Shown: piece after piece, positions 49,630 to 64,000 of the stretch
Layout: each line of letters starts with the position of its first letter
How positions within the stretch are numbered: position 1 is the first letter of the stretch
NCBI RefSeq assembly: GCF_013177635.1
Contig: NZ_CP030944.1
Span: 2,356,001-2,420,000 of the forward strand
Origin: Arcobacter aquimarinus
GTDB taxonomy: Bacteria; Campylobacterota; Campylobacteria; Campylobacterales; Arcobacteraceae
Length of the DNA: 64,000 nucleotides
Direction of reading: 5' to 3'
Made by a program: the position numbers and the translations under genes
Notes under the pieces: generated by a model
The model's input: the letters and a program-made list of their open reading frames with translations, nothing else
The model's database searches: none
Told to the model about the DNA's origin: nothing

Positions 49630-51507
49630 ATGAATTATGATGTAATCGTTGTTGGTGGTGGTCACGCAGGAATTGAAGCCTCACTTGCAAGTGCTAGAAT
49701 GGGGAAAAAAACCCTTTTAATAACAATGTTAGTTGAACAAATAGGAGCTGCTAGTTGTAACCCCGCAATTGGTGGATTAGCAAAAGGACACTTAGTTCGA
49801 GAGCTTGATGCACTTGGTGGAGAAATGGGACTTTGCACTGATGCAACTGGTATTCAATTTAGAATATTAAATGCTTCAAAAGGTGCAGCAGTTCAAGGAA
49901 GTCGTGCTCAAATTGATATGGATAAATACAGAGAGTATATGAGAAAAGTTTGTCATAACACTCCAAATCTTGAAGTTTATCAAGATGAAGTTACAGAACT
50001 TCTAGTAAAAAATACAAATGAAGTTTATGGAGTAAAAACAAAATTAACAGAAGAGTTTACTTCAAAAAAAGTTATTTTAACAACTGGTACATTTATGCGA
50101 GGTTTAGTTCACATTGGTGAAAATAAATATGACGCCGGACGTGCTTGGGAATTACCTTCAACTACTCTATCTTTACAATTAAAAGAGTTAGGTTTAAATG
50201 TTGGTAGATTAAAAACAGGAACTCCAGCAAGACTTGATGGGAACTCTATTGATTTTTCATCAATGGATATGCACGGAGGAGATGTAAATCCTGTTCCTTT
50301 TTCATTTAGAACAAATAAATTAGAATTTAAACCAACTCAATATCCTTGTTATATCACATATACAAATGAAAAAACTCATGAAATAATCTCATCAAACTTC
50401 TATAGAGCACCTCTTTTCACAGGGCAAATAGAAGGTTTAGGTCCAAGATATTGTCCTAGTATTGAAGATAAAGTAAATAGATTCGCAGAACGTGATAGAC
50501 ATCAATTATTTTTAGAACCACAAACAGCAATGTGTACAGAATATTATATAAATGGTATGTCAAGTTCTCTTCCTATTGATGTTCAAAAACAGATGATTCA
50601 TTCAGTTGCTGGTTTAGAAAATGCAAAAATTATAAGATATGGATATGCAATAGAGTATGATTATGTAGACCCTACAGAATTACAACACACTTTAGAAACT
50701 AAAAAGGTAAAAAATCTATATCACGCTGGACAAATAAATGCAACAACAGGATATGAAGAAGCTGCTGCTCAAGGATTGATGGCTGGAATAAATGCTTGTT
50801 TAGCCATTGATGAAAAAGAACCATTTATTTTAAGACGAGATGAAGCTTATATTGGAGTATTAATAGATGATTTAGTAACTAAAGGAACGAATGAACCATA
50901 TAGAATGTTCACTTCTCGTGCTGAATACAGACTTTTATTAAGAGAAGAAAATGCTGATTTAAGACTTTCATCTTATGGTCATGCTTTAGGATTAATTGAT
51001 TCAGAAACAATAGCAAAAGTAGAAAATAAAAGAAAAACTCTAAGTGATGCAATTGAATTTATGGCAAATGAGTGGATTACTTCTAAAAAAGAGAATTTAG
51101 AACTTCTTGAATCAATTGGAGAAGAAAAAATCAATGATAAGGTATTGCTTGTAGATTTAATAGGAAGAAATAGTATTGATGCTGCTAAATTTGACAAACT
51201 AGTACCAAGTTATTCTTCAATGGATGATTATATAAAAGAACAAATAATTATTGAAGCAAAATACTACAGATATATTCAAAAACAACAAAAACAAATAGAA
51301 AAAATGAAAAAAATGCTAAAAGCATCTATTCCAGATGATTTTAGTTATAGAGGATTACCTGGATTATCAAATGAAGTTATTGAAAAGCTAGAAAAGCACA
51401 GACCACCTACACTTTTTAATGCAAGTCTAATTTCGGGAATCACACCAGCTGCTTTAGATATTATACATCTAAATCTAAATATGTTTGTCAAAAACACTAA
51501 AAAATGA
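49630..51507 (+). CDS. mnmG: tRNA uridine-5-carboxymethylaminomethyl modification enzyme MnmG
   Basis: 625 aa, normal length. FAD site [21 protein letters not shown] near 5-25; [22 protein letters not shown] near 42-63 with the conserved catalytic cysteine; [14 protein letters not shown] near 155-168; [19 protein letters not shown] near 365-383; and the helical C-terminal domain with [10 protein letters not shown] near 573-582. With MnmE it modifies the wobble uridine of tRNAs. The last six or seven codons and the stop overlap the first of three repeats that look like a transposon end, so the native C-terminus may have been replaced. Confidence 0.97.
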
Positions 51508-51512
51508 GAATA
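51494..51512 (+). repeat. TnsB-site-like direct repeat 1
   Basis: ACACTAAAAAATGAGAATA, overlapping the last four mnmG codons, the TGA stop and the five bases after it. It matches repeat 2 at 15 of 19 positions. First of three direct copies; the shared core is ACA-T followed by TGA-AAT, comparable to the GACA...TA pattern of Tn7 end repeats. Confidence 0.55.
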
Positions 51513-51513
51513 G

Positions 51514-51532
51514 ACATTAAAAATTGATAATG
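51514..51532 (+). repeat. TnsB-site-like direct repeat 2
   Basis: ACATTAAAAATTGATAATG, starting 20 bases after repeat 1. With the G just before it, it reads GACATTAAAA, close to GACAATAAAG of the Tn7 right end. Confidence 0.6.
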
Positions 51533-51535
51533 TGT

Positions 51536-51554
51536 ACATTAGAATTTGAGAATG
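51536..51554 (+). repeat. TnsB-site-like direct repeat 3
   Basis: ACATTAGAATTTGAGAATG, 22 bases after repeat 2 and 16 of 19 identical to it. The 20-22 base spacing equals the 22-bp size of TnsB sites in Tn7, where those of the right end are contiguous. It ends 15 bases before the tnsE ATG and its last G begins the likely ribosome site. Confidence 0.6.
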
Positions 51555-51569
51555 GAGTTTTAAAATAAC

Positions 51570-53285
51570 ATGGCACGAGGTAAAAATATCATTCCAGATT
51601 TTATGGCTGAAAACCCATATGATACATTTAAACTACTTTTACCTCTTAAACTTAACTTGGATGAGGATAAGTATGGGAATAGCCATTTTAAAGTCATTAT
51701 TAAAAATATGACTCAAAATGAGCTATTTACATATGATTTATCTCCAGAATTATTATTTACTCATTTCCCTTTAGAAAAATCTTTTAGTAATGGTCAACAA
51801 AATGACTACTATCAAAATAAAACAATCTTTGAAAAAGATTTTATAATCGATACTACAAATATCTCTAAAAATAATTCGTATAAACTTCATGAACTGCTTG
51901 ATGAAAAAAGTATTGTTTCTATTAGTGGTTGGAAAAGAAAATTCTTAAATGAATCAAAATACATTAACTGTTATCTAATAGAACAAAATGGGAATAAAAT
52001 CATTATCCCTGATTTTGTAATTGCTATATATTACTACTTTAGATTTTCAGAGATGAGAGAAGCCGCATTAGACTGTAATCTTGAAGACCTATATGTGATG
52101 TGTACTCCCGATAGGAATGATGCAAAAATTGTATTACCAATACCTAGAAATGATGAAGATGCAGCTTTTATACATAGATATGCTTGTAATGAAATTGCCC
52201 AAAAAGAGTTTGATAATATAGGTAAATATATTAACAACTATTTAAGCTATATGAGAAATCTTGATATAGATAAAGAGATCGAAAGTATCCCAATAAAAGC
52301 AAATTTCCCTATAAAAGAGAAGTTTAAAATAGAAACTAGATGTAGTATTTTAACAAATGAAGAAAATAATGAAAAATACTATTTTATACATGAAATACTA
52401 AATGACTATTCTGATATTGGTTTTGATAAATTTACTAAAATTATTGAACAAAATAAAACAATAACTACAATAGATGAATTTGAAAATCTTCCTAAAGTAG
52501 ATAAAGAAATACCTGGAAATATTACTGAAATACTTAAAGGTAAACCTGCAAATAAAAAGTATACTCAAACTCATCATAGAAAAGATAAAAAGAAAAGTTG
52601 TGGTAGTTTAAATGGAATTGAAATTGAGCATGAAACTATTACAAAAGATACTTTAATTGATATCCTAAAAATATATAAAGAACAACAAAATAATGAATCT
52701 ATAGATCAGAGCTTAACAGAATCATCTAATAAAGGTGAAAAAAATATCAGTAAAATTGTAATATCAAGTGAGTTTGAAAAAGAAAATGCAGAAAGAAATC
52801 CTTTAAATGAGATTGATAACTTTACAGTATTTAGACAATATATGGAGTTTTTAGAACAACAATCTTCTATTAAAAATTTTATATTAAGTGAAGTAAAAGA
52901 TTTACCTGAATTTCTGATTGAAAAAGATGGAGATAAAAAAGTAAATTCTAAATGTAAAATAAAAAAGAGACAAAAACAATATCTTACTGCCACATTTCAA
53001 TATGAAGAAATATATATAGGACTATTAGAGCTTGAGAACAAGCCTTCATCAGCAGCTGCTACTTGGGTAATAATTTCAAGAGAAAATTACATTTCCGAAC
53101 ATATATTTAATAGTTTTATTTCATTTTTTTTAGAAGACAATTTATCAACCAAAGAATTAAAAGCTATATATACTAAATCTCCCATAAAATTCATTACAAA
53201 AAATCACGAAAGGGATGAGAACTTAACAATAGAACAACTTAGCAAATGGCTAGCTGCATTAATAGGAAAACTATCCATCAATTGA
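51570..53285 (+). CDS. tnsE: TnsE-like transposition target selector
   Basis: 571 aa, compared with 538 for Tn7 TnsE. Three points support the call: an IPDFVIAIYYYFRFSEMREAAL stretch (about 144-165) parallel to IPQLELARSLFLINSYFCRS of Tn7 TnsE; a C-terminal block ending GLLELENKPSSAA...TWVIISRE...LAALIGKL that matches the TnsE C-terminal domain pattern; and HFKVIIKNMTQNELFTYDL (39-57) at the position of the Tn7 clamp-binding segment, here with a classical QxxLF motif (Q49-F53). TnsE directs insertion to the lagging strand of replicating DNA, favouring conjugative plasmids, by binding the sliding clamp. A linker around 305-420 is polar and lysine-rich. GGAG lies 12 bases before the ATG, a long gap. 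Unlike in Tn7 the gene is far from tnsABCD and faces the other way. Confidence 0.75.
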   Translation: MARGKNIIPDFMAENPYDTFKLLLPLKLNLDEDKYGNSHFKVIIKNMTQNELFTYDLSPELLFTHFPLEKSFSNGQQNDYYQNKTIFEKDFIIDTTNISKNNSYKLHELLDEKSIVSISGWKRKFLNESKYINCYLIEQNGNKIIIPDFVIAIYYYFRFSEMREAALDCNLEDLYVMCTPDRNDAKIVLPIPRNDEDAAFIHRYACNEIAQKEFDNIGKYINNYLSYMRNLDIDKEIESIPIKANFPIKEKFKIETRCSILTNEENNEKYYFIHEILNDYSDIGFDKFTKIIEQNKTITTIDEFENLPKVDKEIPGNITEILKGKPANKKYTQTHHRKDKKKSCGSLNGIEIEHETITKDTLIDILKIYKEQQNNESIDQSLTESSNKGEKNISKIVISSEFEKENAERNPLNEIDNFTVFRQYMEFLEQQSSIKNFILSEVKDLPEFLIEKDGDKKVNSKCKIKKRQKQYLTATFQYEEIYIGLLELENKPSSAAATWVIISRENYISEHIFNSFISFFLEDNLSTKELKAIYTKSPIKFITKNHERDENLTIEQLSKWLAALIGKLSIN

Positions 53286-53293
53286 AAGTTAAG

Positions 53294-54082
53294 CTAAAAA
53301 TATTCACTTAAATCAATTTCTATTCCAATGGGACAATGGTCTGAACCTAAGACATCTTTTAAAATAAAGGCATCTCTTAGTTTTGATTTTAAATCTTCTG
53401 AAATCAATATATAATCTATTCTCCAACCTTCATTTTTTTCTCTAGCTTTTGAACGGTAAGGAAACAAAGTATAAGCATTGAGTACATTCCCATTTATATA
53501 TCTAAAAGAATCCACAAATCCATTATTAAGAAAAAACTCAAAATGTTCTCTTTCTATATCTGTGAAACCTGCATTTGAATATATTTTTCCAGGCTTTAAA
53601 TCTAAGTCAGAATAAGCAGTATTAAAATCACCACATATAATTATTGAAAAACCTCTATTCTTTAAATTATTACAATAATTAAAAAATTCTTTATAAAAAT
53701 TAAGTTTTCGAAGAAGTCTACTCTTATTTAATTTTCCATTAGGAAAATATACATTAAATATAGCCAACCCTTCATATATATATTCAATCACTCTTCCATC
53801 ATTTTCTATATCCACTTCATTACAAAAAGATTTACTTTTAGGCATATATTTAGAAAAAGACAATGTTCCTGAAAATCCTTTTGAAAATTCACTTGGATTA
53901 TTAGTATATATCTCAAACTTTGTTTTAAATAAGCTTATAAAATTATGTATATCTTCAGATAGTTTTGTTTCTTGTAAAAATAAAAAATCTGTTTTTTTCT
54001 CATCTATCCAACTTAGAGCTTTTTTCTTTTCAATTGCTTTAAGACCATTGACATTCCAACTTATTATATTTATATTTTTCAT
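53294..54082 (-). CDS. Exonuclease III family AP endonuclease/exonuclease
   Basis: 262 aa. The endonuclease/exonuclease/phosphatase fold motifs appear in order: ISWNVNGLKA at 6-15, LFLQETKL near 33-40 (metal-binding Glu), VYFPNGK near 113-119, IICGDFNTAYSDLDL near 148-162 (catalytic Asp and Asn), and RIDYILIS near 222-229 plus GSDHCPIGIEI near 246-256 (catalytic Asp-His). ExoIII-type enzymes cut at abasic sites and remove nucleotides from 3' ends. Within the transposon it is convergent with tnsE, eight bases apart. It may be a cargo repair gene, perhaps helping at insertion gaps, but this could also be a host gene if the boundary is wrong. Confidence 0.85.
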   Translation of the reverse strand: MKNINIISWNVNGLKAIEKKKALSWIDEKKTDFLFLQETKLSEDIHNFISLFKTKFEIYTNNPSEFSKGFSGTLSFSKYMPKSKSFCNEVDIENDGRVIEYIYEGLAIFNVYFPNGKLNKSRLLRKLNFYKEFFNYCNNLKNRGFSIIICGDFNTAYSDLDLKPGKIYSNAGFTDIEREHFEFFLNNGFVDSFRYINGNVLNAYTLFPYRSKAREKNEGWRIDYILISEDLKSKLRDAFILKDVLGSDHCPIGIEIDLSEYF

Positions 54083-54204: not shown

Positions 54205-55578
54205 ATGAATAAACAACAAAAACCAATTCATACTAATATTGATTTATTACAAACTAGATTTACTTATTTAAAAAGTTTAGGTGATGAATTTTGGTCATTT
54301 AAAAATGATTATAAAAGAGATCATTCTCACTCATATTTTAGATATCCTGCAATGATGGTTCCTCAAATGATAAGAAAGATATTAGATGAAATATGCAGAA
54401 CAGACCCAAATATAAAACATATTCATGATCCATTTGTTGGATCTGGTACAATATTGACTGAAAGTATGTTACGAGGTTTAGAATTTACAGGGAGAGATAT
54501 AAATCCTCTTTCAATTTTATTATGTAAAGTAAAGTCTGGCCCCTTTTATCAAAAAGCACTAGAGAATAAAATCAATAATTTATATAATGTGATTAGCGAT
54601 GATACTTTATCAATTATAGATTTGAATTTTAAAAATATTGATAAATGGTTTAGAAAAGATATTCAAATAGAACTTTGTAGAATAAGGAGATCTATAAAAA
54701 AAGAAAAAACTCCATGGATTAGAAGATTTTTTTGGGTTGCTTTTGCAGAGACTGTTAGATTAGTTAGTAATTCAAGAACAACCACTTATAAACTTCATAT
54801 CCGAGAAAAAGAACAAATTGAATCTAGAAACTTAGATGTTAAAAAGATATTCAAAAAGAATTTAGAGGATAATTTCTTTCAATTTAAAGAAACAAGAACT
54901 TATCTAAAAAAAAATGGATTACTTAATAAAGATACTTATAAAAAAGATATACGACTTATACTTGGAGATGCAAAAAAAAAGTTAAAAATCAAAAATAAAT
55001 TCGACTTAATCCTAACCTCTCCACCATATGGCGATAATCATACTACGGTTACATATGGTCAATATTCCTATTTACCTTTGAGTTGGATTGATTTAGAAGA
55101 TATAGATAAAAGAATTACTCCTAAATGTTTAGAAAACTTTTCTATGATTGATTCTATGAGTCTAGGTGGTAGAAGTTTTAGTAATCTCAAAAAAGAAAAA
55201 TATTTAAAAAATCTTTCTCCAACTTACGCTCAATATATTAGAATATTTGCAGATAAGCCTAAAGAATTAATAAATAAATTAACTTCTTTTTTTTATGATT
55301 TAGACCAAACATTAAGTCCTCTATGTGAAAACTTAAATGATAATGGCTATTTAATTTGGACTTTAGGGAATAGAACTGTTGGAGGAATAAATATAGAATT
55401 AGATAAAGTTCTTATTGAACTTTTCAAGGCAAAAAATATAAGATTAATTGACATATTTTATAGACCTATACCCAATAAAAGAATGGCTTCAAAAAATAAA
55501 TCTGCAAAAACTATGACAAGAGAAAGTATAGTAATCTTCAAAAAACATAATGAAGAAATATTTCTAACAAAAAAATAA
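54205..55578 (+). CDS. DNA amino-methyltransferase (SPPY type)
   Basis: 457 aa. The SAM-binding motif HDPFVGSGTILTES starts at D75 near the N-terminus and is followed by FTGRDINPLS; the catalytic motif TSPPYGD is at about 271-277. The motif order (SAM loop, long middle region, SPPY) fits a DNA base-methylating enzyme of the alpha-like order, and SPPY points to N4-cytosine, though N6-adenine cannot be excluded. About 190 residues between the motifs, rich in Arg/Lys, could be the target recognition region. A GGGG ribosome site precedes the ATG. The helicase-nuclease gene follows after 64 bases, same direction, which suggests a two-gene modification/restriction unit. Confidence 0.85.
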   Translation: MNKQQKPIHTNIDLLQTRFTYLKSLGDEFWSFKNDYKRDHSHSYFRYPAMMVPQMIRKILDEICRTDPNIKHIHDPFVGSGTILTESMLRGLEFTGRDINPLSILLCKVKSGPFYQKALENKINNLYNVISDDTLSIIDLNFKNIDKWFRKDIQIELCRIRRSIKKEKTPWIRRFFWVAFAETVRLVSNSRTTTYKLHIREKEQIESRNLDVKKIFKKNLEDNFFQFKETRTYLKKNGLLNKDTYKKDIRLILGDAKKKLKIKNKFDLILTSPPYGDNHTTVTYGQYSYLPLSWIDLEDIDKRITPKCLENFSMIDSMSLGGRSFSNLKKEKYLKNLSPTYAQYIRIFADKPKELINKLTSFFYDLDQTLSPLCENLNDNGYLIWTLGNRTVGGINIELDKVLIELFKAKNIRLIDIFYRPIPNKRMASKNKSAKTMTRESIVIFKKHNEEIFLTKK

Positions 55579-55642
55579 TTTTTCTAATCTAAATAAAATA
55601 ATTTTTTCTATATTATTAAGTACTAATAAAAGGAGAATTATT

Positions 55643-58600
55643 ATGAATTCATTTGAAGAAAAAGATTTAGAACAATATACAAATGAGCAGAAAGAAGCAA
55701 TTACTTCAGATAACAATCTTAGGATAATTGCTTGTGCAGGATCAGGAAAAACGAAAACATTAGTTGGAAAAATTAAATATTTATTAGAGAATTCAAAAAA
55801 CCCTAAAATTGAACCAGAAAATATCATAGCCTTTACATATACTGAAAAAGCTGCAAATGAATTAAAAAGTAGAGTTGTAAGTAAAATAGATTCTAAACAT
55901 GGAATTGCACAAATGTTTGTAGGAACAATTCATGGATGGTGTTTAAAAGTGCTTCAAGATTATTTATTTACTAAATATCAAAATTATTCAGTTTTAAGTG
56001 AAATTAAACTTAAGTTATTTGTCGATAAATATTATTATACTAATGGAATGGTAGATTTAAAACATATGAAACATGGTAGTGATTTATGGAGATTTAAACA
56101 TACGAACATTTTTCTTAATATCATTGATATTATCAGAGAACAAGGTTTAATTAAAATTACTCCGGAGTATATTAAGGATGCAATAGTTAAATATGAAAAA
56201 AGTTTAACAGATAAAAAATATCTTGATTTTACAATGTTACTGACGAAAACACTGGATGCATTAAATGAAGATAATGAATTAACTAAATACATTGCAAAAA
56301 AAATAAAATATTTAATTGTTGATGAATATCAAGATGTAAATAATATTCAGAATAAATTAATTAAAAGAATATGTGATATAAGTCAGTGCAAAATTATTGT
56401 TGTAGGAGATGATGATCAAAATATATATAAGTGGAGAGGAAGTAATAATACTTACATTAGAAATTTTTTTAAAAAAGATTTTAAAGATATTTATTTAACA
56501 AAAAATTTCCGTAGTTCTGAGGGAATTGTAGTATTAGCAAGCACGTTAATAGAAAATAATGAAAAAAGACTTCCAAAAAATATGGAGTCTGCAGGGAACC
56601 AAGAATATAAAAGAAAAGATATTTTATTTAATCAATATGCTAATGTTGATGATGAAGATAAAGGTATTGCAAAATATATTAAAGATGAAGTTTTAGGAAT
56701 GCCATTTTATGATGAAGGTTTAAAGTCTAAAAATAAAAAAGAACCAAGGGGTATAACCTATTCTGATATATGTATTCTAGTGAGATATAAAAAAAGAATA
56801 AATTCATTAACAAAAGTATTTGATGAATGTGGAATCGATTATATAACAGCTGGAGTTACAAATTTGTTTGAACAGAAAGAAATAATTGCATCTGTTGGAA
56901 TATTTGAATATTTAAATAAATTATCTAAAACTGCAGAAAAATATATAGATCAAATATCTTCAGAAATTAACACTGAATATAAAGATATTTTACAAAAAAT
57001 AATTAATAATACAAAAAAAAGACAAAATAAAGAAAAAGTTAATATTGAAGAAGGAGATTATTCTAAAGAAAGTATATTAAAAATTTTACAAGAAAAGTTA
57101 TTATCTAAATTAAATGATAATGAAAATGAATTATTAAAATTTTGTGAAAATGAATTGTTTAGTAAATGGGAGTTTATAAATTCAAAAGATTTTTTAATAA
57201 ATAAATTATTTGAAGGGGAAAAGAGACTAATTACTATGCTGCCTTTTAAAGGACTTTTTCATGGAAAAATTGGGTTAGATAATGAATTCTTAAATTTTGA
57301 TTGGGAATATAATCTTCAAGAAATATTTCAAAACTTTTTTGAAGTAACAAATTTTAATGAAGATTCTATTCAACAAAATAAAACTAAATCTCAAGTAGAA
57401 ATAATATTTTTTAATTTAGGAAAATTTAGTCAGGTAATAAATGATTATGAAGAAGTTAATTTTACAACTACTTGTCCAGATAAATACTTAGAATATTTTT
57501 TAAAATTTCTAGAACATGGTGCTAAAGATTATTATGAAGAAGGATGGGTAAATAATACATTTAGAACGGTTAATGCTGTTCAAATAATGACTATCCATCA
57601 AGCAAAGGGACTAGAATTTCCTGTTGTAGTTATTCCTGGCTTAAATGAAAACTTTCTTCCCGGTTCAAATATGGGAGGAACAAGTGAAATACATTTTTTA
57701 CCAGATGATTTCAAAAAGCCTCTAGAGGAATTAAAAATTGATGCTAAAAAAGAAGATGAACGAAGGTTATTTTATGTTGCTATAACTAGAAGTCAAAAAT
57801 ATTTATTTTTATCCCAGGCTCCAGTAAATAAAATGGCAAAAAAGGTTTCAAGATTTATAAAAGAAATGGAATCTCCAAATATCTTAATTGATTCAAATAA
57901 TACAAAAATTTTTCCAGATGATATAAAAATTAAACAACAGGCTAAAAATGATAGAAATAATCTGCAATTAGATTTTACAACATTAAGTGATTATTTTTAC
58001 TGTCCATATAAGTTTAAATTAGTTTCACTTTATGGGTTTTGTACACCATTAAATAGAAGAATGGGTTATGGAAAATCTTTTCATAGTGCATTAATGGAAT
58101 ACCATATTCGTAGAGGGAAAGAAGAAGTTTTAACTGACGTAGAAATCAATGATATAGTTGATAGACAAACTTATTTCCCTTATCAATCAGACTTATTAGC
58201 AGGTGATTTAAAAAATAAGTTAACTAAAAATTTAAAATCTTATCATTCTGATATTAAGGATAGTTTAAGAGTAGAATATGTTGAACAAGACATTCAATAT
58301 AAAATTAATGATGATATATTAATAGTAGGTAAAGTAGATCTAATAAAAAATGAAAAAAATTATAATGATTTTGAAACAGTAATTGTTGATTTTAAAACAA
58401 AAGTACCAAAGAATAATGATGACAAAGAAATAACAGATGAATTAACTAATAATCAGTTAAATCTTTATGCAATTGGATATAAAGAATTAACAGGAGAAAA
58501 TGCAACTTCAACGCAAATTTTTAATTTAGATTATGATAATAAGGACAGAAATCATAATAATCCTAAATTAATTAATAATACTCAATTGGAAGATTTAAAA

Positions 58601-58705
58601 ATAAAAATAAGAGATTCAGTTGATTCAATAAAAACTTCTAATTTCTTAAAATGTAATAAACCAAAATATTGTGATTTATGTAAATATAAGTCTCTATGTA
58701 TATAA
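55643..58705 (+). CDS. UvrD-like helicase fused to an AddB/Cas4-type iron-sulphur nuclease
   Basis: 1020 aa. Superfamily 1A helicase motifs: Q motif TNEQKEAI (13-20), Walker A ACAGSGKT (30-37), LIVDEYQDVN near 222-231, VVGDDDQNIYKWRG near 252-265, TIHQAKGLEFPVV near 649-661 and EDERRLFYVAITRS near 702-715. The C-terminal 240 residues are a PD-(D/E)XK nuclease: DYFYCPYKFKLV near 781-792, a GKSFHSAL His motif, VGKVDLI and VIVDFKTK (Asp...Asp-x-Lys), then CDLCKYKSLC at the end; with the cysteine near 785 these would bind a 4Fe-4S cluster as in AddB and Cas4. It would unwind and degrade DNA from ends. The GGAG ribosome site is good. It looks more AT-rich than the host genes. Confidence 0.85.
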   Translation: MNSFEEKDLEQYTNEQKEAITSDNNLRIIACAGSGKTKTLVGKIKYLLENSKNPKIEPENIIAFTYTEKAANELKSRVVSKIDSKHGIAQMFVGTIHGWCLKVLQDYLFTKYQNYSVLSEIKLKLFVDKYYYTNGMVDLKHMKHGSDLWRFKHTNIFLNIIDIIREQGLIKITPEYIKDAIVKYEKSLTDKKYLDFTMLLTKTLDALNEDNELTKYIAKKIKYLIVDEYQDVNNIQNKLIKRICDISQCKIIVVGDDDQNIYKWRGSNNTYIRNFFKKDFKDIYLTKNFRSSEGIVVLASTLIENNEKRLPKNMESAGNQEYKRKDILFNQYANVDDEDKGIAKYIKDEVLGMPFYDEGLKSKNKKEPRGITYSDICILVRYKKRINSLTKVFDECGIDYITAGVTNLFEQKEIIASVGIFEYLNKLSKTAEKYIDQISSEINTEYKDILQKIINNTKKRQNKEKVNIEEGDYSKESILKILQEKLLSKLNDNENELLKFCENELFSKWEFINSKDFLINKLFEGEKRLITMLPFKGLFHGKIGLDNEFLNFDWEYNLQEIFQNFFEVTNFNEDSIQQNKTKSQVEIIFFNLGKFSQVINDYEEVNFTTTCPDKYLEYFLKFLEHGAKDYYEEGWVNNTFRTVNAVQIMTIHQAKGLEFPVVVIPGLNENFLPGSNMGGTSEIHFLPDDFKKPLEELKIDAKKEDERRLFYVAITRSQKYLFLSQAPVNKMAKKVSRFIKEMESPNILIDSNNTKIFPDDIKIKQQAKNDRNNLQLDFTTLSDYFYCPYKFKLVSLYGFCTPLNRRMGYGKSFHSALMEYHIRRGKEEVLTDVEINDIVDRQTYFPYQSDLLAGDLKNKLTKNLKSYHSDIKDSLRVEYVEQDIQYKINDDILIVGKVDLIKNEKNYNDFETVIVDFKTKVPKNNDDKEITDELTNNQLNLYAIGYKELTGENATSTQIFNLDYDNKDRNHNNPKLINNTQLEDLKIKIRDSVDSIKTSNFLKCNKPKYCDLCKYKSLCI

Positions 58706-58714
58706 AAAAAGTAC

Positions 58715-58750
58715 ATCAATATAGATATTAGAAATAATTACTATATTGAT
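58715..58750. terminator. Convergent terminator inside the transposon
   Basis: ATCAATATAG (58715-58724) and CTATATTGAT (58741-58750) form a 10-bp stem with a 16-base loop between the helicase stop and the end of the leftward tns operon. Confidence 0.5.
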
Positions 58751-59199
58751 ATCTTCTCTTTTATATTTTTTGATAAATCTTGCTTTTCTAAAAGATACTT
58801 TTTACACAAATATGTAGCTTTAAGAAGAATTCTTTCAATTTGGCTATTATTCAATTTCTGATATCGAGATAAATTAATTAAAATATCTTTATTTCCATCT
58901 TCAATTAATTTATCAATATCTTCCATACTCAAATCATTTCTTTGTGCAATAATAATCTTATAATTCTGAGCAATTAAAGCTGTTGTATTTATAGCAGAAA
59001 TAAACTCATCACTATTTTTGTCAACAGTTAAATAATCTACAGACTTCATATCCTTTAATTTTTCAAACTCTTGTTGTCTATATTCTTCTAAAACTTCTTT
59101 TTCAGCTCTAACCCAGTCATTACCACCCTCTGAAGATAAACTTCCAAACTCTAAACCAAGTCTTTCATAAATTTTAATTCTTAATTCTTTACTGTCCAT
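58741..59199 (-). CDS. Unknown protein in the tns operon (DUF2934-like start)
   Basis: 152 aa, soluble and mainly helical. The first 40 residues (RIKIYERLG...GGNDWVRAEKEVLEEYR) resemble the short DUF2934 motif (an R-x-x-A/I-Y-E start followed by G-x-x-D-W-x-x-A-E), whose role is unknown. The last third has an ILINLSRYQKLNNSQIERILL repeat-like segment. It starts three bases after the tniQ stop, so it is the fifth gene of a tightly packed tns operon, suggesting a role in transposition, target choice or element maintenance. That is inference from position. Confidence 0.6.
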   Translation of the reverse strand: MDSKELRIKIYERLGLEFGSLSSEGGNDWVRAEKEVLEEYRQQEFEKLKDMKSVDYLTVDKNSDEFISAINTTALIAQNYKIIIAQRNDLSMEDIDKLIEDGNKDILINLSRYQKLNNSQIERILLKATYLCKKYLLEKQDLSKNIKEKISI

Positions 59200-59202
59200 A
59201 TT

Positions 59203-60399
59203 TTACTTTTTTACATAATTATAACTTATTTTAAATATCTTTCTATAAATTTTATTAAACCCTTTATGAATACTAGGATGACAACAAACTATTTCAGCAA
59301 CATTTATAATATTTACTCGTTCGCCTATGCTTTTTAAATATTTTATTGCTCCAATAACTTCACTTTCAACTATTTCTCTGCCTTTTTTATTTTCTATTGG
59401 CACTAAATCAAGTATCAAATTTTTATACCAAAAAGAAGCATCTTTAAATCCATGTAAAAAATCTCTATAAGTAATATGATTTTCTTTTACAAATTTTTGG
59501 AAATTAACTGGAAGATTTTGGAATAAAAAATAAATCATTGCAGTTAGGAAGAAATCTTTATAAATCATACTTGCCTTTTTAGAATTGTAATTTTCAAGTT
59601 TTTTACAAAGATTTTTATATTCATTTATCAAAGGAAAATCATCTAAAATCAGATTTTCTTTTCTATCGAGTAAATAAACAAATCTTTTAAAACTATCAAA
59701 TACAAAAACTGAATGAACTTTTTGATTATGGATTATAAAATAACCTCTATCCAATCCTTTTTCAAACCATTTCACAGCTTTTAGTCCATATTTATAGTTT
59801 GATTGAATTTTTATAAAAAGTGTAGTGCCTAAATCTTTTTCACACTTACTGCAAACCGCTAAATTTTTATTATGTTTTATTTTTGAAAAATTAATCTTTT
59901 CATAACAAACCCAACATCTATCAGTTAAAAATATTTCATGTTTAGTACAAACATTATAGAATTGATATCTCCATTTTTTTCTAAAATATGGGATTTCATC
60001 CTCAGCTAAACATTTTGGACAATACATCAAACCATAGTGGTTTCTTTTATCTAGTAATTTTCTTATTTGATTTGGAGGATATAAATTATTGGCACTACAT
60101 GAATAAAGATAACCTTCTTCACTACGAAGAGACATTTTAAAAATATCTTCTTTACTCAAATTACTTTTATTTACTATAGCTTCATATAATTTTTCATCAT
60201 ACAAAAAATCTATATCTGTTCTAGATATAGAACTACCCTCTTTTTTTACAAAAAGAGTCAAAAAAGTAGAAAGTTGTCTTTTATGTTCAAGGGCAACTCT
60301 TGTAAGCCAAGAGCTTAAAAGTTCATCTTCCAAAGGTTGTGGTACTATTAAAAAGAAATAGTCTTGAACCCAAGCATTATTTCTTTTTTTCTTTGCCAT
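59203..60399 (-). CDS. tniQ: TniQ family protein (TnsD-type target selector)
   Basis: 398 aa. The N-terminal QPLEDELLSSWLTRVALEHKR (about 21-41) is the TniQ opening. A zinc-binding series follows: YCPKC near 130-134, CTKH near 151-154, CWVC near 164-167 and CSKC near 183-186. The C-terminal half, about 190 residues, is helical and basic, with an HPSIHKGFNKIYRKIF end; it would bind target DNA. It is shorter than Tn7 TnsD (508 aa) and similar in length to TniQ proteins. It would bring the TnsC complex to a fixed chromosomal site. It follows tnsC by one base. Confidence 0.85.
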   Translation of the reverse strand: MAKKKRNNAWVQDYFFLIVPQPLEDELLSSWLTRVALEHKRQLSTFLTLFVKKEGSSISRTDIDFLYDEKLYEAIVNKSNLSKEDIFKMSLRSEEGYLYSCSANNLYPPNQIRKLLDKRNHYGLMYCPKCLAEDEIPYFRKKWRYQFYNVCTKHEIFLTDRCWVCYEKINFSKIKHNKNLAVCSKCEKDLGTTLFIKIQSNYKYGLKAVKWFEKGLDRGYFIIHNQKVHSVFVFDSFKRFVYLLDRKENLILDDFPLINEYKNLCKKLENYNSKKASMIYKDFFLTAMIYFLFQNLPVNFQKFVKENHITYRDFLHGFKDASFWYKNLILDLVPIENKKGREIVESEVIGAIKYLKSIGERVNIINVAEIVCCHPSIHKGFNKIYRKIFKISYNYVKK

Positions 60400-60400
60400 G

Positions 60401-61270
60401 TTACAACTTTGGTAAATACTCTATATCATCAACTGTAATATATTCTCTTTTTGATTTTATAGCTTTTATAGCTGCTTTTTTTAGTAAATTAACCGCTTTA
60501 CCTATCAATCCCTCTGATTGATAAAATAAAGCATTTAATAATTCAACATTATCAGCCATATTTGAAGCTTTTTTAAGAGGTAGACATTTTTCATAAGTTG
60601 CCACAAATGACCTAAATTTTCTATCATTATTCCATCTAGGAAGTTCAAGTGCTGGAAATCTTGTACTTGTTTCATTTCCTATTGATAAAGCTGAATATGC
60701 TTCTCTTGTACCTGCTAAAACAATTGTTAGAGATAAACTATTACTTAACTGTTTTAAATCATCTATAAAAGTTCTTTGTTTATTTAGATTTCCTCTTAAT
60801 GCACTATGTATTTCATCAATTAAAATCATTCTTGTACCAAGTTTATTCAAAAAATGTTTTGCAAGATTAGCTTTTACAACAACCTTATCTGTTCTTTTTT
60901 GAGGAACACATAACTCATCTAAAATAAGGCTATATAATCTACTTTCATCAGGAACTGTTGGTGCTTGGAAATATATAATAGGTATTTCATAAATTGCTTC
61001 ACCATCTTTTGTAGCATAATCAAGTTTTGTCTTATGCAATTCATACATTCTTTTTAAAATCGCTGTTTTACCATTATTTGAATCACCATAAATAAGTAAT
61101 CCCTCATGCCTCATTTGAGGTGGGTCTAAAAATTTATCTTCTAAAATCTCTACTAACTTTACAGCTGAACCATATCCAATCCAATGATCTTTTTTACAAT
61201 ATATAATTCTTTCTTCATCACTTTTACTTAAATATTCAAAAGCTTCATTTGTTAAATTTCTTTCATTCAT
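60401..61270 (-). CDS. tnsC: TnsC/TniB-type AAA+ transposition regulator
   Basis: 289 aa. Walker A GDSNNGKT near 62-69, Walker B MILIDEIHSALRG near 146-158, then TIVLAGTREAYSAL near 180-193 (sensor 1) and ETSTRFPALELPRW near 198-211 (arginine finger region). TnsC forms ATP-dependent filaments on target DNA and links the selector (TniQ or TnsE) to TnsAB. The length is that of TniB proteins, about half that of Tn7 TnsC (555 aa), so the C-terminal TnsA-contact region of Tn7 is lacking. It follows tnsB by three bases. Confidence 0.88.
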   Translation of the reverse strand: MNERNLTNEAFEYLSKSDEERIIYCKKDHWIGYGSAVKLVEILEDKFLDPPQMRHEGLLIYGDSNNGKTAILKRMYELHKTKLDYATKDGEAIYEIPIIYFQAPTVPDESRLYSLILDELCVPQKRTDKVVVKANLAKHFLNKLGTRMILIDEIHSALRGNLNKQRTFIDDLKQLSNSLSLTIVLAGTREAYSALSIGNETSTRFPALELPRWNNDRKFRSFVATYEKCLPLKKASNMADNVELLNALFYQSEGLIGKAVNLLKKAAIKAIKSKREYITVDDIEYLPKL

Positions 61271-61273
61271 AAA

Positions 61274-63160
61274 TTAGCCTATTGGATAGATTTCATAATC
61301 ACTATCATCTTCTTCATTAAATTGTTTTCCTAAATTTAATTTAGATTGAGATTTAGGAGTAACATCTAATACTTTTGATTCATATTCCATTGTTTTCTCT
61401 TGATGTTTTTTCGTACTTTTTTGTCTTCTAACAGACTTAGTTTCTTTTTTAGCATCCAAAATATATTGATTTAATCTTTCGTGAGCTTCAAAAATATCAT
61501 GAGGTTCAAGTTCCCTTCCTGTAATAGCTTTTTTTGCTTCACTTATAGATCTTCTTAATTCTGTTAAATCCATAGCTGGTCTTCGTATATCTGCATATGG
61601 TACTATTATATAATCTTTAATATCTTCATCATAAACATAGATTTTACTAATATCTCTTGGATCTCTTCTACACTCAACTTCATTTATCAAATCAGGTTTT
61701 AATTTTTTATATTGAGATGGAATTATATATTTTCTAAGAGTTTCAGAAAAATAAGTAATATAATCAATAGTTATCCCATTTTTTTGGACACTTCTTTTTA
61801 TTTTTGGTAGTAAGGACATTCTAAATTTTATAGTATCAGCAGGTACTATTGGTAAAAATGGTATTTCTTTCTCATCTCCAACTCCAAGTAAACCTTGATA
61901 AAATTTTTCTTCAGGTGTCATACCTAAAGAACTATGTACAGTTTTATGATATACATTTACTATAAAATCAACATACCACTTCTCTAATTCAGAAACAGTT
62001 ACTGCTGCTTTTTTACCCGATTTATATTTCCCTCTTTCAAATATATTTGAAAAAGTACTTCCTGGTAATTGATGTGTTTTTTTCATAAAAGTACCGATAA
62101 CACGCTCGACTGCCCCACCAAATTCAGGACGTGCAACTGGACGATAGATATCTTCTATACCAAATTCACTACAAAAACCATGTAAACTTATTGACCTAAA
62201 ATCTTTTCCATTGTCCATATGAATTTTGCGAGGCAATCCATATACAGGCCATTCTCCTGTAATACCATGTTGATTCAGAAAATCATCTTTTGGTAATACT
62301 GCATTTAAAAAACATTGCCCTACACTAAAATAGCTTGGTGCATTTAATGAAATATAAAATCCATAAATCATTCTACTATACATATCAATAGCAACAGTGA
62401 TAAATGGTCTTCCTATTTCTTCTCTTGTTTCCTCATCAACTAAAATTACATCAACTTTAGTATGATCAATTTGTATAATATCTAGAGGTAGTTTTACTTC
62501 AGGAAATTTCCCAGGCATTCCTCTAGTTTCTCTTACACTAAGATTTTTTCTATGTTTTGCAATTAATTTAGGATTAATGTTATTAAGCCGATTCCTTATA
62601 GCTCCTCTTTTAGGAATCTGAACATTAAATTTTTTACATTCATTTGCAATTACATTATAAATATTTGAAAATGGCAATTGCTGGTCATCTAAATAAACTT
62701 CATTGATTATTGTATTTATAATTGCCTCTGTTTCTTGAGGAAATCTAGATTTTCCTTTACCTCCACAATTTTCTCTATTTCCAGCTAAGGAACTAACTGT
62801 GCCAAACTTCTCAAAAGTTTCAATCCATCTATAAAGAGTTGCCATACCTTTTTTAAATTTTTTAGCTCGTTTTTCTACATCTTTAGCTGTTCTCTTCTCC
62901 ATTTCAAGTAAAGGTTTAATTATTTCATACTTTTCATTTGCTTTATCTAGAGCTTTATCTCCATATTCAACTTGTGATTTTTCAGGTTCATTTGCATTTT
63001 TAGAATTTTTTATTAAATCATTTACTTTTACAATTATTTCTTCATAGGGACTAATACTCTTTTTTAATAAAACTTTATCAGCAGAAGGATAACTTTTTAT
63101 AATATATTCATTATCTTCATAAAATATTTTTGAGTTTATATTAAATTTAATTACTCCCAT
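61274..63160 (-). CDS. tnsB: TnsB transposase (DDE/Mu-type integrase core)
   Basis: 628 aa from the ATG at 63160, which has GGAG seven bases upstream; the ATG at 63175 is less likely. Winged or helix-turn-helix segments (about 80-200, with ATLYRWIETFEKFG) bind the end repeats. Catalytic triad: IQIDHTKVD (Asp near 231), HMDNGKDF (Asp near 316) and GGAVERVIG (Glu near 351), spaced as in a DD-35-E core. SLGMTPEEKF follows. The C-terminal 100 residues are polar and probably contact TnsC. It joins 3' ends to the target. The start overlaps the tnsA stop by 14 bases, so the two are translated together. Confidence 0.92.
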   Translation of the reverse strand: MGVIKFNINSKIFYEDNEYIIKSYPSADKVLLKKSISPYEEIIVKVNDLIKNSKNANEPEKSQVEYGDKALDKANEKYEIIKPLLEMEKRTAKDVEKRAKKFKKGMATLYRWIETFEKFGTVSSLAGNRENCGGKGKSRFPQETEAIINTIINEVYLDDQQLPFSNIYNVIANECKKFNVQIPKRGAIRNRLNNINPKLIAKHRKNLSVRETRGMPGKFPEVKLPLDIIQIDHTKVDVILVDEETREEIGRPFITVAIDMYSRMIYGFYISLNAPSYFSVGQCFLNAVLPKDDFLNQHGITGEWPVYGLPRKIHMDNGKDFRSISLHGFCSEFGIEDIYRPVARPEFGGAVERVIGTFMKKTHQLPGSTFSNIFERGKYKSGKKAAVTVSELEKWYVDFIVNVYHKTVHSSLGMTPEEKFYQGLLGVGDEKEIPFLPIVPADTIKFRMSLLPKIKRSVQKNGITIDYITYFSETLRKYIIPSQYKKLKPDLINEVECRRDPRDISKIYVYDEDIKDYIIVPYADIRRPAMDLTELRRSISEAKKAITGRELEPHDIFEAHERLNQYILDAKKETKSVRRQKSTKKHQEKTMEYESKVLDVTPKSQSKLNLGKQFNEEDDSDYEIYPIG

Positions 63161-63818
63161 TATTTTTCTCCACAATAGATTTCATCGTGACTTTTTCATT
63201 TTCTAAATCAGTTTTTAAAATATTTTGAGCCACAAGTTTCCAAATATTATTTGAAACTATTTGATACTCACTTTGAGATTTCATAATTAAATTCGCAATT
63301 TCAAGTGCTGTCATTTTTTTGTCTTTTAAGACATCTAATATAATATCATCATACTTATCTTCAGAAGGATGAAGAATAAATCTGTACAAAAAATCAATAT
63401 TTGATATATAAATTTCATTAAAATTTAGTTCTGTTAGAAATTTAAAATCTACACCTATTTCATCAGATCTTATTTTTGCAGCATTAAATTTCTTTTCATA
63501 AATATCTTTATTTTTTTCAAATTCACTTAAGTATTTAACTTCAATAAGTGCATCTTTTAGATTTGATTTTTTACATCTTTTAACAAAACAATCTAGGTCA
63601 TACTTTTGTGGTTTACCATTTTTAATTATCATAATTCTTGGTTGTTCTCGGTAAGTTTCTACAGTATTATCAAATTCTAAAGAAAGGAAAAGTGTTTTTT
63701 CAAGTGAAGAGTCAAACCCAATAGATCTATTGTTTTTAACACTTGGGAAATGTCCCGTTACAGAACGATAGCTTTTTTTAATTTGTCTTTGTCCAAAAGT
63801 TATTGCATCATCATACAT
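63147..63818 (-). CDS. tnsA: TnsA endonuclease
   Basis: 223 aa. The restriction-enzyme-like active site is visible: FDSSLEKTLF (E40), YDLDCFV (D76) and ALIEVKY (E93, K95), in the order of the E-D-(Q/E)-x-K set of Tn7 TnsA. The C-terminal 90 residues form the winged-helix domain for TnsB/TnsC contact (MTALEIANLIMKS near 169-181). TnsA cuts the 5' ends of the element, making the move cut-and-paste. A minus-strand TATAAT at 63844-63849 is a likely promoter; GGAT before the ATG is a weak ribosome site. Confidence 0.9.
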   Translation of the reverse strand: MYDDAITFGQRQIKKSYRSVTGHFPSVKNNRSIGFDSSLEKTLFLSLEFDNTVETYREQPRIMIIKNGKPQKYDLDCFVKRCKKSNLKDALIEVKYLSEFEKNKDIYEKKFNAAKIRSDEIGVDFKFLTELNFNEIYISNIDFLYRFILHPSEDKYDDIILDVLKDKKMTALEIANLIMKSQSEYQIVSNNIWKLVAQNILKTDLENEKVTMKSIVEKNNGSN

Positions 63819-64000
63819 AATTTATCCAAAGTAATTTTAATAAATTATAGTATAAATATTCTTTTATTAAAATATTAAAATTTTTCTTCGTATTATTAAT
63901 ATTTAATATGATTATATATCATTAATTTAAATTTAGCTATTATAATTGAAATTAAATATTGGTTAAAAAAATATGCATATTCAATCAACATTCATTCATT
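63819..64000. other. Non-coding tail upstream of tnsA
   Basis: 182 bases, about 85% A+T. The only firm item is the minus-strand TATAAT at 63844-63849 (probable tnsA promoter). The element's right end should lie here or just past the edge, but no clear copies of the 19-bp repeats were found; the sequence near 63977-64000 (CAATCAACATTCATTCATT) is at best a weak match. Confidence 0.4.

What the first reader, a model, noticed from the sequence alone, without database searches (positions are those of the whole stretch)
54205..58705. Methyltransferase plus helicase-nuclease pair: candidate two-gene restriction-like defence system
A SPPY-type DNA methyltransferase is followed, 64 bases later, by a single protein joining a complete UvrD-type helicase to an AddB/Cas4-like PD-(D/E)XK nuclease with four cysteines for an iron-sulphur cluster. 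No classical restriction enzyme or specificity subunit is nearby. One marks DNA, the other could unwind and destroy unmarked DNA. I do not recognise this exact pair as a named system, and its place as transposon cargo fits defence.
Basis: partly seen in the sequence, partly recalled or inferred. Interest (0 to 1): 0.8.

Follow-up and report, generated by a model that had tools for sequence, protein, structure and literature searches.

The report
Methyltransferase paired with helicase-nuclease
A mobile DNA element carries two neighbouring genes, one that probably marks DNA and one that probably unwinds and cuts DNA; the cutter belongs to a known but untested family linked to bacterial defence, and here it stands alone beside a marking enzyme it is not usually found with.

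Summary
At 54205-55578 lies an intact SPPY-type DNA methyltransferase; 64 bases on, at 55643-58705, an intact UvrD helicase fused to a PD-(D/E)XK nuclease with four conserved cysteines. Both are cargo of a Tn7-like transposon inserted after mnmG. Ten sibling elements at that site carry other cargo; seven of ten cargo proteins tested match defence models.

The helicase-nuclease is not a host AddB/RecB: the other 103 family genomes searched lack it. It is a UvrD-Cas4 fusion, a family described in 2017 beside type III Mod/Res or Dcm methylases. My count agrees: a DNA methylase within 5 kb in 18 of 34 loci, against 2 of 88 plain UvrD loci. The methyltransferase's nearest relatives neighbour a GHKL ATPase; a sister set goes with MvaI/BcnI restriction enzymes. 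In none of 41 relatives' loci was UvrD-Cas4 next door. The exact pair is rare, apparently a partner swap, but methylase plus UvrD-Cas4 recurs.

Best reading: an RM-like defence module; the methyltransferase protects self, UvrD-Cas4 destroys unmarked DNA. No activity is shown, and how unmarked DNA would be recognised without a restriction enzyme is unknown. New variant of a known kind.

The parts
54205..55578 (+). DNA methyltransferase, 457 aa, N6_N4_Mtase; lies in the clade whose relatives neighbour a GHKL ATPase
54427..54450 (+). MTase motif I (DPFVGSGT, residues 75-82), SAM binding
   Evidence: motif name recalled
55015..55038 (+). MTase motif IV (TSPPYGDN, residues 271-278), catalytic
   Evidence: motif name recalled
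55579..55642 (+). 64-base gap between the two genes; ribosome-binding-site-like AAGGAG at 55630-55635
55643..58705 (+). UvrD-Cas4 type helicase-nuclease, 1020 aa
55727..55753 (+). Walker A region of the helicase (IACAGSGKT, residues 29-37)
56321..56335 (+). Walker B region of the helicase (DEYQD, residues 227-231)
58001..58003 (+). Cys787, first of four conserved cysteines (predicted iron-sulphur cluster)
58337..58396 (+). PD-(D/E)XK core, D899 to D916-x-K918
58670..58699 (+). Cys1010, Cys1013, Cys1019, remaining predicted cluster ligands
51486..51562 (.). Left end of the Tn7-like element: TGTCA followed by three T(G/T)A(G/T)AAT-type repeats (51505, 51525, 51547), overlapping the 3' end of mnmG; similar repeats in sibling elements
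   Evidence: end assignment is inference
51570..53285 (+). 571 aa protein of unknown family, first gene inside the left end in all ten siblings opened (split in L045); element gene, not part of the pair
53294..54082 (-). exodeoxyribonuclease III (xth), extra copy; the host has another at 858888 (45%)
58741..59199 (-). 152 aa ORF, no match above a curated cut-off, convergent with the helicase-nuclease
59203..60399 (-). tniQ
60401..61270 (-). tniB/tnsC
61274..63175 (-). tnsB
63147..63818 (-). tnsA
63881..63900 (.). Conserved stretch at the right end, after which sibling sequences diverge
   Evidence: end assignment is inference

Best explanation
A restriction-modification-like defence module carried as cargo by a Tn7-like transposon. 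The methyltransferase marks the host's own sites (inferred). The UvrD-Cas4 protein unwinds DNA with its UvrD-type helicase and cuts strands with its Cas4/AddB-like nuclease (domains shown, activity inferred), destroying DNA that lacks the mark. Because no Res subunit or recognisable type II enzyme is encoded in the element, the likeliest way to direct it is that the methyltransferase, bound at an unmodified site, loads or licenses the helicase-nuclease, as Mod does for Res in type III systems; or else the protein enters at DNA ends or breaks made by other enzymes. The step that recognises unmarked DNA is not shown.
For: Two intact co-directional genes 64 bases apart with the catalytic residues kept. 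UvrD-Cas4 loci have a protein with DNA methylase motifs within 5 kb in 18 of 34 cases against 2 of 88 plain UvrD loci from the same scans, and within 1.5 kb in 15 of 34 against 0 of 88 (Fisher p about 2e-10 and 3e-10). With homology searches 32 of 42 (window included) against 4 of 88, 23 of the 42 being Mod plus Res. A methylase next to UvrD-Cas4 with no Res found recurs in L142 (C5 methylase overlapping it by 23 bases), in L140 (C5 methylase, divergent, 826 bases away) and, with a 462 aa unknown after it, in Haloferax L272. Ten sibling transposons carry other cargo at the same place; of ten cargo proteins tested from six of them, seven match PADLOC models: type II MTase, REase_II, type IIG, IetS, HerA, PDC-M30A twice. 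A part in defence is also the published prediction for the family (PMC5704561).
Against: The exact pairing was found only once: none of 41 relatives of the methyltransferase has it within 1.5 kb, and no plasmid record of 72,556 covers 80% of it. Relatives of the methyltransferase have other neighbours (GHKL ATPase or MvaI/BcnI enzyme). 23 of 42 UvrD-Cas4 genes sit with a Mod-Res set and 10 of 42 have no methylase within 5 kb, so the protein may be an accessory, as the 2017 authors suggest. Nothing here shows activity, the methylated base, or protection.
Confidence: 0.58

Rival explanations
1. Two independent cargo genes: the methyltransferase is a leftover of a GHKL-type restriction system whose other genes were lost, and the helicase-nuclease is a separate accessory or stand-alone defence nuclease placed beside it by recombination.
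For: The methyltransferase nests in a clade whose recognised partners are all GHKL ATPases (19 rows: GHKL 11, none 6, edge 1, window; support 100/100); its relatives L234-L237 are followed directly by a GHKL ATPase. The pair occurs once among 42 loci. UvrD-Cas4 genes without a methylase exist: 10 of 42 loci (some of these near contig ends).
Against: Operon-like spacing with a ribosome-binding-site-like sequence, both genes intact; the helicase-nuclease family is strongly linked to methylases in general.
Confidence: 0.22
2. The helicase-nuclease only clears ends made by other nucleases (host enzymes or other defence systems), like RecBCD, and the methyltransferase protects the element's host against a separate restriction enzyme.
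For: The 2017 authors call the UvrD-Cas4 role ancillary (PMC5704561); in plasmids L005 and L006 it sits near type II systems with annotated MspI or MvaI/BcnI-family enzymes; its fold matches UvrD, AddA, AdnB and RecB.
Against: No partner restriction enzyme is recognisable in the element; L142 shows a C5 methylase and UvrD-Cas4 with no enzyme recognised beside them.
Confidence: 0.14
3. A DNA repair helicase-nuclease of the host (AddB/RecB/AdnB orthologue), not a defence protein.
For: Same domain order as AdnB; structure and profile matches to UvrD, AddAB, AdnAB.
Against: Matched in 1 of 104 family genomes (E 1e-60) and 1 of 397 phylum genomes (E 1e-50), each time only the window's own; it lies inside a transposon; the host has its own helicase gene 33% identical over residues 14-425.
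Confidence: 0.03
4. Transposon function: the helicase-nuclease helps this Tn7-like element to move or be repaired.
For: It lies near tniQ, with one small ORF between.
Against: 0 of 10 sibling elements with the same tnsABC-tniQ set and site carry it.
Confidence: 0.03

Closest known systems
UvrD-Cas4 fusions (pfam12705 branch) beside type III Mod-Res or Dcm/Vsr, Hudaiberdiev et al. 2017, PMC5704561
   Same: UvrD helicase fused to a Cas4-like nuclease with cysteine cluster; neighbour of a DNA methylase; predicted defence
   Different: Here no Res and no Dcm; the methyltransferase is of another family and lies upstream
Methyltransferase-GHKL ATPase systems (compare the MORC and other GHKL restriction operons of Iyer et al. 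2008, PMC2292703; that this exact set is in that paper was not checked)
   Same: The methyltransferase belongs to this partner clade
   Different: GHKL ATPase is absent; UvrD-Cas4 stands in its place
MvaI/BcnI type II restriction-modification
   Same: Methyltransferase of the same wider family
   Different: No MvaI/BcnI endonuclease; separate clade
Type III restriction-modification (Mod-Res)
   Same: One methylase plus one ATP-dependent motor-nuclease protein
   Different: Motor is UvrD (superfamily 1) not ResIII (superfamily 2); no Res gene
AdnAB / AddAB / RecBCD
   Same: UvrD-type helicase with C-terminal RecB-like nuclease
   Different: Single chain, no partner subunit beside it, on a transposon
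Gabija (GajAB)
   Same: UvrD-type helicase in a two-gene system; GajB models match the helicase part
   Different: No GajA recognised; the helicase carries its own nuclease

Membership tests
UvrD-Cas4 fusion family (PMC5704561) | UvrD N- and C-terminal domains and PDDEXK_1 (pfam12705) in one chain | tested here: met
UvrD-Cas4 fusion family (PMC5704561) | Nuclease residues and four cysteines conserved | tested here: met
   a cluster itself is not shown
UvrD-Cas4 fusion family (PMC5704561) | Groups with fusions that neighbour Mod-Res or Dcm | tested here: met
   5-row set with L005 (C5), L052/L053 (type III) and L138 (none), SH-aLRT 99; quick tree without bootstrap. The paper's own clade was not rebuilt
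UvrD-Cas4 fusion family (PMC5704561) | Neighbouring Mod-Res or Dcm genes | tested here: not met
   these are the conserved contexts in the paper, which also reports stand-alone genes
Type III restriction-modification | Res subunit (ResIII helicase with RE_endonuc) | tested here: not met
   no ResIII match in the nine element genes scanned
MvaI/BcnI type II restriction-modification | MvaI/BcnI endonuclease beside the methyltransferase | tested here: not met
   12 of 41 relatives have it
Methyltransferase-GHKL systems | GHKL ATPase beside the methyltransferase | tested here: not met
   11 of 41 relatives have it
Methyltransferase-GHKL systems | Methyltransferase of the GHKL-partnered clade | tested here: met
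   100/100
Gabija | GajA (OLD-family ATPase/TOPRIM nuclease) | tested here: not met
   no such match among the genes scanned
AddAB/AdnAB | Obligate partner subunit | tested here: inconclusive
   none beside it; the other host matches lie in open frames of 690 and 685 aa; a diverged partner elsewhere was not sought by profile
Tn7-like transposon | TnsA, TnsB, TnsC/TniB, TniQ together | tested here: met
Tn7-like transposon | Constant insertion site and repeated end sequences | tested here: met
   mnmG in 10 of 10 siblings opened; left repeats and right conserved stretch. Target duplication was not tested
Restriction-modification | Methylation of a defined motif and restriction of unmodified DNA | not testable with these tools
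   needs methylome and phage or plasmid assays

The most novel reading that the evidence does not exclude
A minimal two-gene, ATP-dependent restriction type: a type II-like methyltransferase serves as both marking and recognition subunit and directs a RecB/AdnB-like UvrD-Cas4 motor-nuclease, which is the only restriction engine, with no Res, GHKL ATPase or site-cutting enzyme. The same logic would explain C5 methylase plus UvrD-Cas4 (L142) and show that effectors are exchangeable behind methyltransferases.
Probability: 0.27. Interest if true: 0.7.

Novelty: new variant of a known kind. Interest (0 to 1): 0.45.

Why it matters
The UvrD-Cas4 family was predicted in 2017 to serve several defence systems, and the searches I made of the held papers listed no experimental study of it (mostly listings). 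It is usually part of a larger operon. Here it stands with one methyltransferase, on a short element with recognisable ends. That makes a direct test possible: is this helicase-nuclease an effector in its own right or only an accessory? If an effector, it would add a RecB-like engine to the known kinds of restriction and suggest that methyltransferases swap effectors (type II enzyme, GHKL ATPase, UvrD-Cas4).

Tried and rejected
Host AddB/RecB orthologue: rejected, no match in the other 103 family genomes at E 1e-60 or the other 396 phylum genomes at E 1e-50. Gabija: only the helicase part matches. Pair conserved in near relatives: none in ten sibling elements; G080's element has a 28% methyltransferase followed by PRTase-CE and ORC-CDC6-like proteins instead. 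Pair in plasmids: no place in 72,556 records covers 80% of the joined query. Pair in Campylobacterota-type relatives (phylum search): 15 distant methyltransferase loci (L219-L233, about 4 kb each), none with UvrD-Cas4; one (L220) has an MvaI/BcnI-like enzyme. Inverted-repeat search for transposon ends was uninformative at about 25% G+C; comparison of siblings worked better. Fold search of the methyltransferase model (pLDDT 85.7) gave only general SAM-methyltransferases. The helicase-nuclease model has pLDDT 74.1; its structural matches covered mainly residues 3-756, so the nuclease part rests on sequence, with one structural row for human Exonuclease 5 (Z 15.6, rmsd 2.8, 161 aligned). Sequence search found no solved close relative of the methyltransferase.

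Caveats on counts. One search used sequence motifs; it missed true Mod genes (L050, L051, L139, L055, L057; compare) and left out 14 loci with helicase ORFs of ambiguous length; 40 cases and 96 controls were thinned to 34 and 88 by likeness. One 'control' (L141) is really a UvrD-Cas4 gene cut by its contig end. One search drew many methylase queries from the case loci (L272's own among them), so it leans towards cases; 15 loci were left out, among them the Enterococcus locus L269, whose helicase is split. Of the 5 loci that labels methylase without Res, L204 ends 1.9 kb after the gene and in L157 and L169 the methylase found is 4.5-4.7 kb away; only the window and L272 are clear. Several of the 10 without methylase lie near contig ends. 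In one search, 14 relatives are labelled 'none' and 4 are at contig edges; one search shows weak GHKL matches beside three of the 'none' rows (L242, L243, L249). Of 29 plasmid hits of the methyltransferase I opened 11 and used 10 (L134 left out, gene incomplete); of 32 viral loci I used 31 (L265 left out); 39 of the 42 were long enough for the tree. The 15 loci L219-L233 were not in that tree.

Full report
What is there. Two intact genes lie as described: a 457 aa methyltransferase (54205-55578) and a 1020 aa helicase-nuclease (55643-58705), 64 bases apart on the + strand, with a ribosome-binding-site-like sequence before the second. Pfam and PADLOC agree on the domains. Key residues are invariant among the relatives aligned.

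Where it sits. The genes are cargo of a Tn7-like element with tnsA, tnsB, tniB/tnsC and tniQ on the right. TnsB relatives occur in 24 of 104 family genomes at E 1e-30, the window's own included. I opened the ten best besides the window's own: in 10 of 10 the element lies after mnmG, a 571 aa protein of unknown family (split in L045) is the first gene inside the left end, and tnsABC-tniQ close the other side. The left end shows three short repeats just after mnmG; at the right a conserved stretch is followed by divergence. Cargo differs. Of ten cargo proteins tested, from six of the siblings (L039, L041, L042, L045, L046, L048), seven match PADLOC defence models (type II MTase, REase_II, type IIG, IetS, HerA, PDC-M30A twice) and three match none. 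None of the ten siblings has the helicase-nuclease; one has a 28% methyltransferase.

The helicase-nuclease. It is matched in no other family or phylum genome searched (1 of 104 at E 1e-60; 1 of 397 at E 1e-50, the one being the window's genome). Relatives at about 34-39% identity come from plasmids, genomes and viral contigs of several phyla. Their neighbours are telling. L050, L051, L052, L053, L139, L055, L057 and L007 have Mod-like and Res-like genes of type III systems beside them. L005 has a C5 methylase and an MspI-family enzyme nearby, L006 a Dcm and an MvaI/BcnI-family enzyme. Of ten further plasmid loci that I opened, six show the order helicase-nuclease, methylase, large third gene (L266, L267, L270, L271, L273, L275); L269 shows it with a split helicase; L274 with two genes between; L272 differs (below); L268 has no methylase annotated. 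L142 has only a C5 methylase, overlapping the gene; Haloferax L272 has an N6_N4 methylase 13 bases upstream and a 462 aa protein without Pfam match downstream. L138 and L054, close relatives, have no methylase within 5 kb.

Counting. From the two scans plus three plasmid loci, I compared UvrD-Cas4 genes with plain UvrD genes. A methylase, recognised by motif, lies within 5 kb of 18 of 34 against 2 of 88, and within 1.5 kb of 15 of 34 against 0 of 88 (Fisher p 2e-10 and 3e-10). By homology, with more plasmid loci and the window, it is 32 of 42 against 4 of 88; 23 of the 42 are labelled type III-like, 4 C5, 5 methylase without Res, 10 without methylase. Limits of these counts are under Tried and rejected.

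Prior knowledge. Hudaiberdiev et al. 2017 (PMC5704561; passages, and section 8 in full) describe this protein family, UvrD-Cas4 fusions, with type III Mod-Res as the commonest context and Dcm, sometimes with Vsr, as the other; they predict a part in several defence systems, probably ancillary. It is the only paper in the held library with the term 'UvrD-Cas4'. Wider searches (listings, apart from passages of PMC12839542) listed no experimental study of it. Benler et al. 2021 (PMC8649781, passages) find restriction-modification to be the commonest defence cargo of Tn7-like elements.

The methyltransferase. Its family splits mainly in two (39 rows). One set neighbours MvaI/BcnI restriction enzymes, the other a GHKL ATPase. 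In L234, L236, L237, L238 and L240 the ATPase (828-841 aa) follows the methyltransferase and is itself followed by a 505-646 aa companion; in L246, L247 and L252 a shorter ATPase precedes it. The window's gene lies inside the GHKL set (100/100), nearest by path to L234, L236 and L235. Over 42 loci the partners within 1.5 kb are: MvaI/BcnI 12, GHKL 11, none recognised 14, contig edge 4, UvrD-Cas4 1 (the window). So the effector behind this methyltransferase appears to have been exchanged. MORC and other GHKL ATPases in restriction operons, and displacement of genes in such operons, were described by Iyer et al. 2008 (PMC2292703, passages). The motif TSPPY suggests N4-cytosine or N6-adenine methylation; which one is not known (motif meaning recalled).

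How it may work. Shown: domains, residues, gene order, transposon setting, family link with methylases. Inferred: the methyltransferase protects host sites; the helicase-nuclease unwinds and cuts unprotected DNA. Structure comparison places the motor with UvrD, AddA, AdnB and RecB, engines that run along DNA from an end or a gap (recalled). With no site-cutting enzyme recognised in the element, either the methyltransferase directs it, as Mod directs Res, or it feeds on ends made elsewhere. I put the first idea at about one in four overall (the section on the most novel reading) and the general defence reading at 0.58.

Verdict. The claim of an unrecognised conserved pair is only partly right: the helicase-nuclease family and its tie to methylases are known, while this pairing, lacking Res, Dcm, GHKL and any recognisable restriction enzyme, was seen once. 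It is a new variant of a known kind, useful because it is small enough to test.

Noticed in passing
51570-53285: A 571 aa protein without Pfam, NCBIfam or PADLOC match is the first gene inside the left end in 10 of 10 sibling Tn7-like elements at mnmG; it could be a target-site or transposition factor. It matches in 8 of 31 genus genomes, the window's own included. mnmG is not mentioned in the main text of the two Tn7 papers searched for it.
   Followed up: partly
53294-54082: An extra exonuclease III gene in the cargo; the element of G080 has a 64% copy at the same place, also next to a methyltransferase gene.
   Followed up: partly
L004:13973-18521 (just right of the element, mostly beyond the window): Four genes: RNase H-like/kinase-like protein, short adenylosuccinate synthetase-like protein (321 aa), dCTP deaminase-like protein, deoxynucleoside kinase. 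The set recalls phage nucleotide-remodelling genes (recalled).
   Followed up: no
L234:5938-11574, L237:5932-11600, L131:5950-11580: Recurrent three-gene set: methyltransferase, GHKL-like ATPase, and a ~600 aa protein; in L234 the ATPase has two HATPase matches and the third protein none in Pfam.
   Followed up: partly
L138:7992-13865 and L050:13378-16299: Two UvrD-Cas4 loci have a sacsin-like GHKL protein beside or near them (SACS and NOV_C in L138; L050 judged by eye).
   Followed up: no
L006:5752-8847: The Vibrio UvrD-Cas4 protein carries an N-terminal helix-turn-helix-like extension, by eye.
   Followed up: no
L269:9621-12227, L270:9618-12278, L271:9663-12374: The third gene of three distant UvrD-Cas4/methylase sets is annotated as carrying a TnsA endonuclease N-terminal domain.
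   Followed up: no
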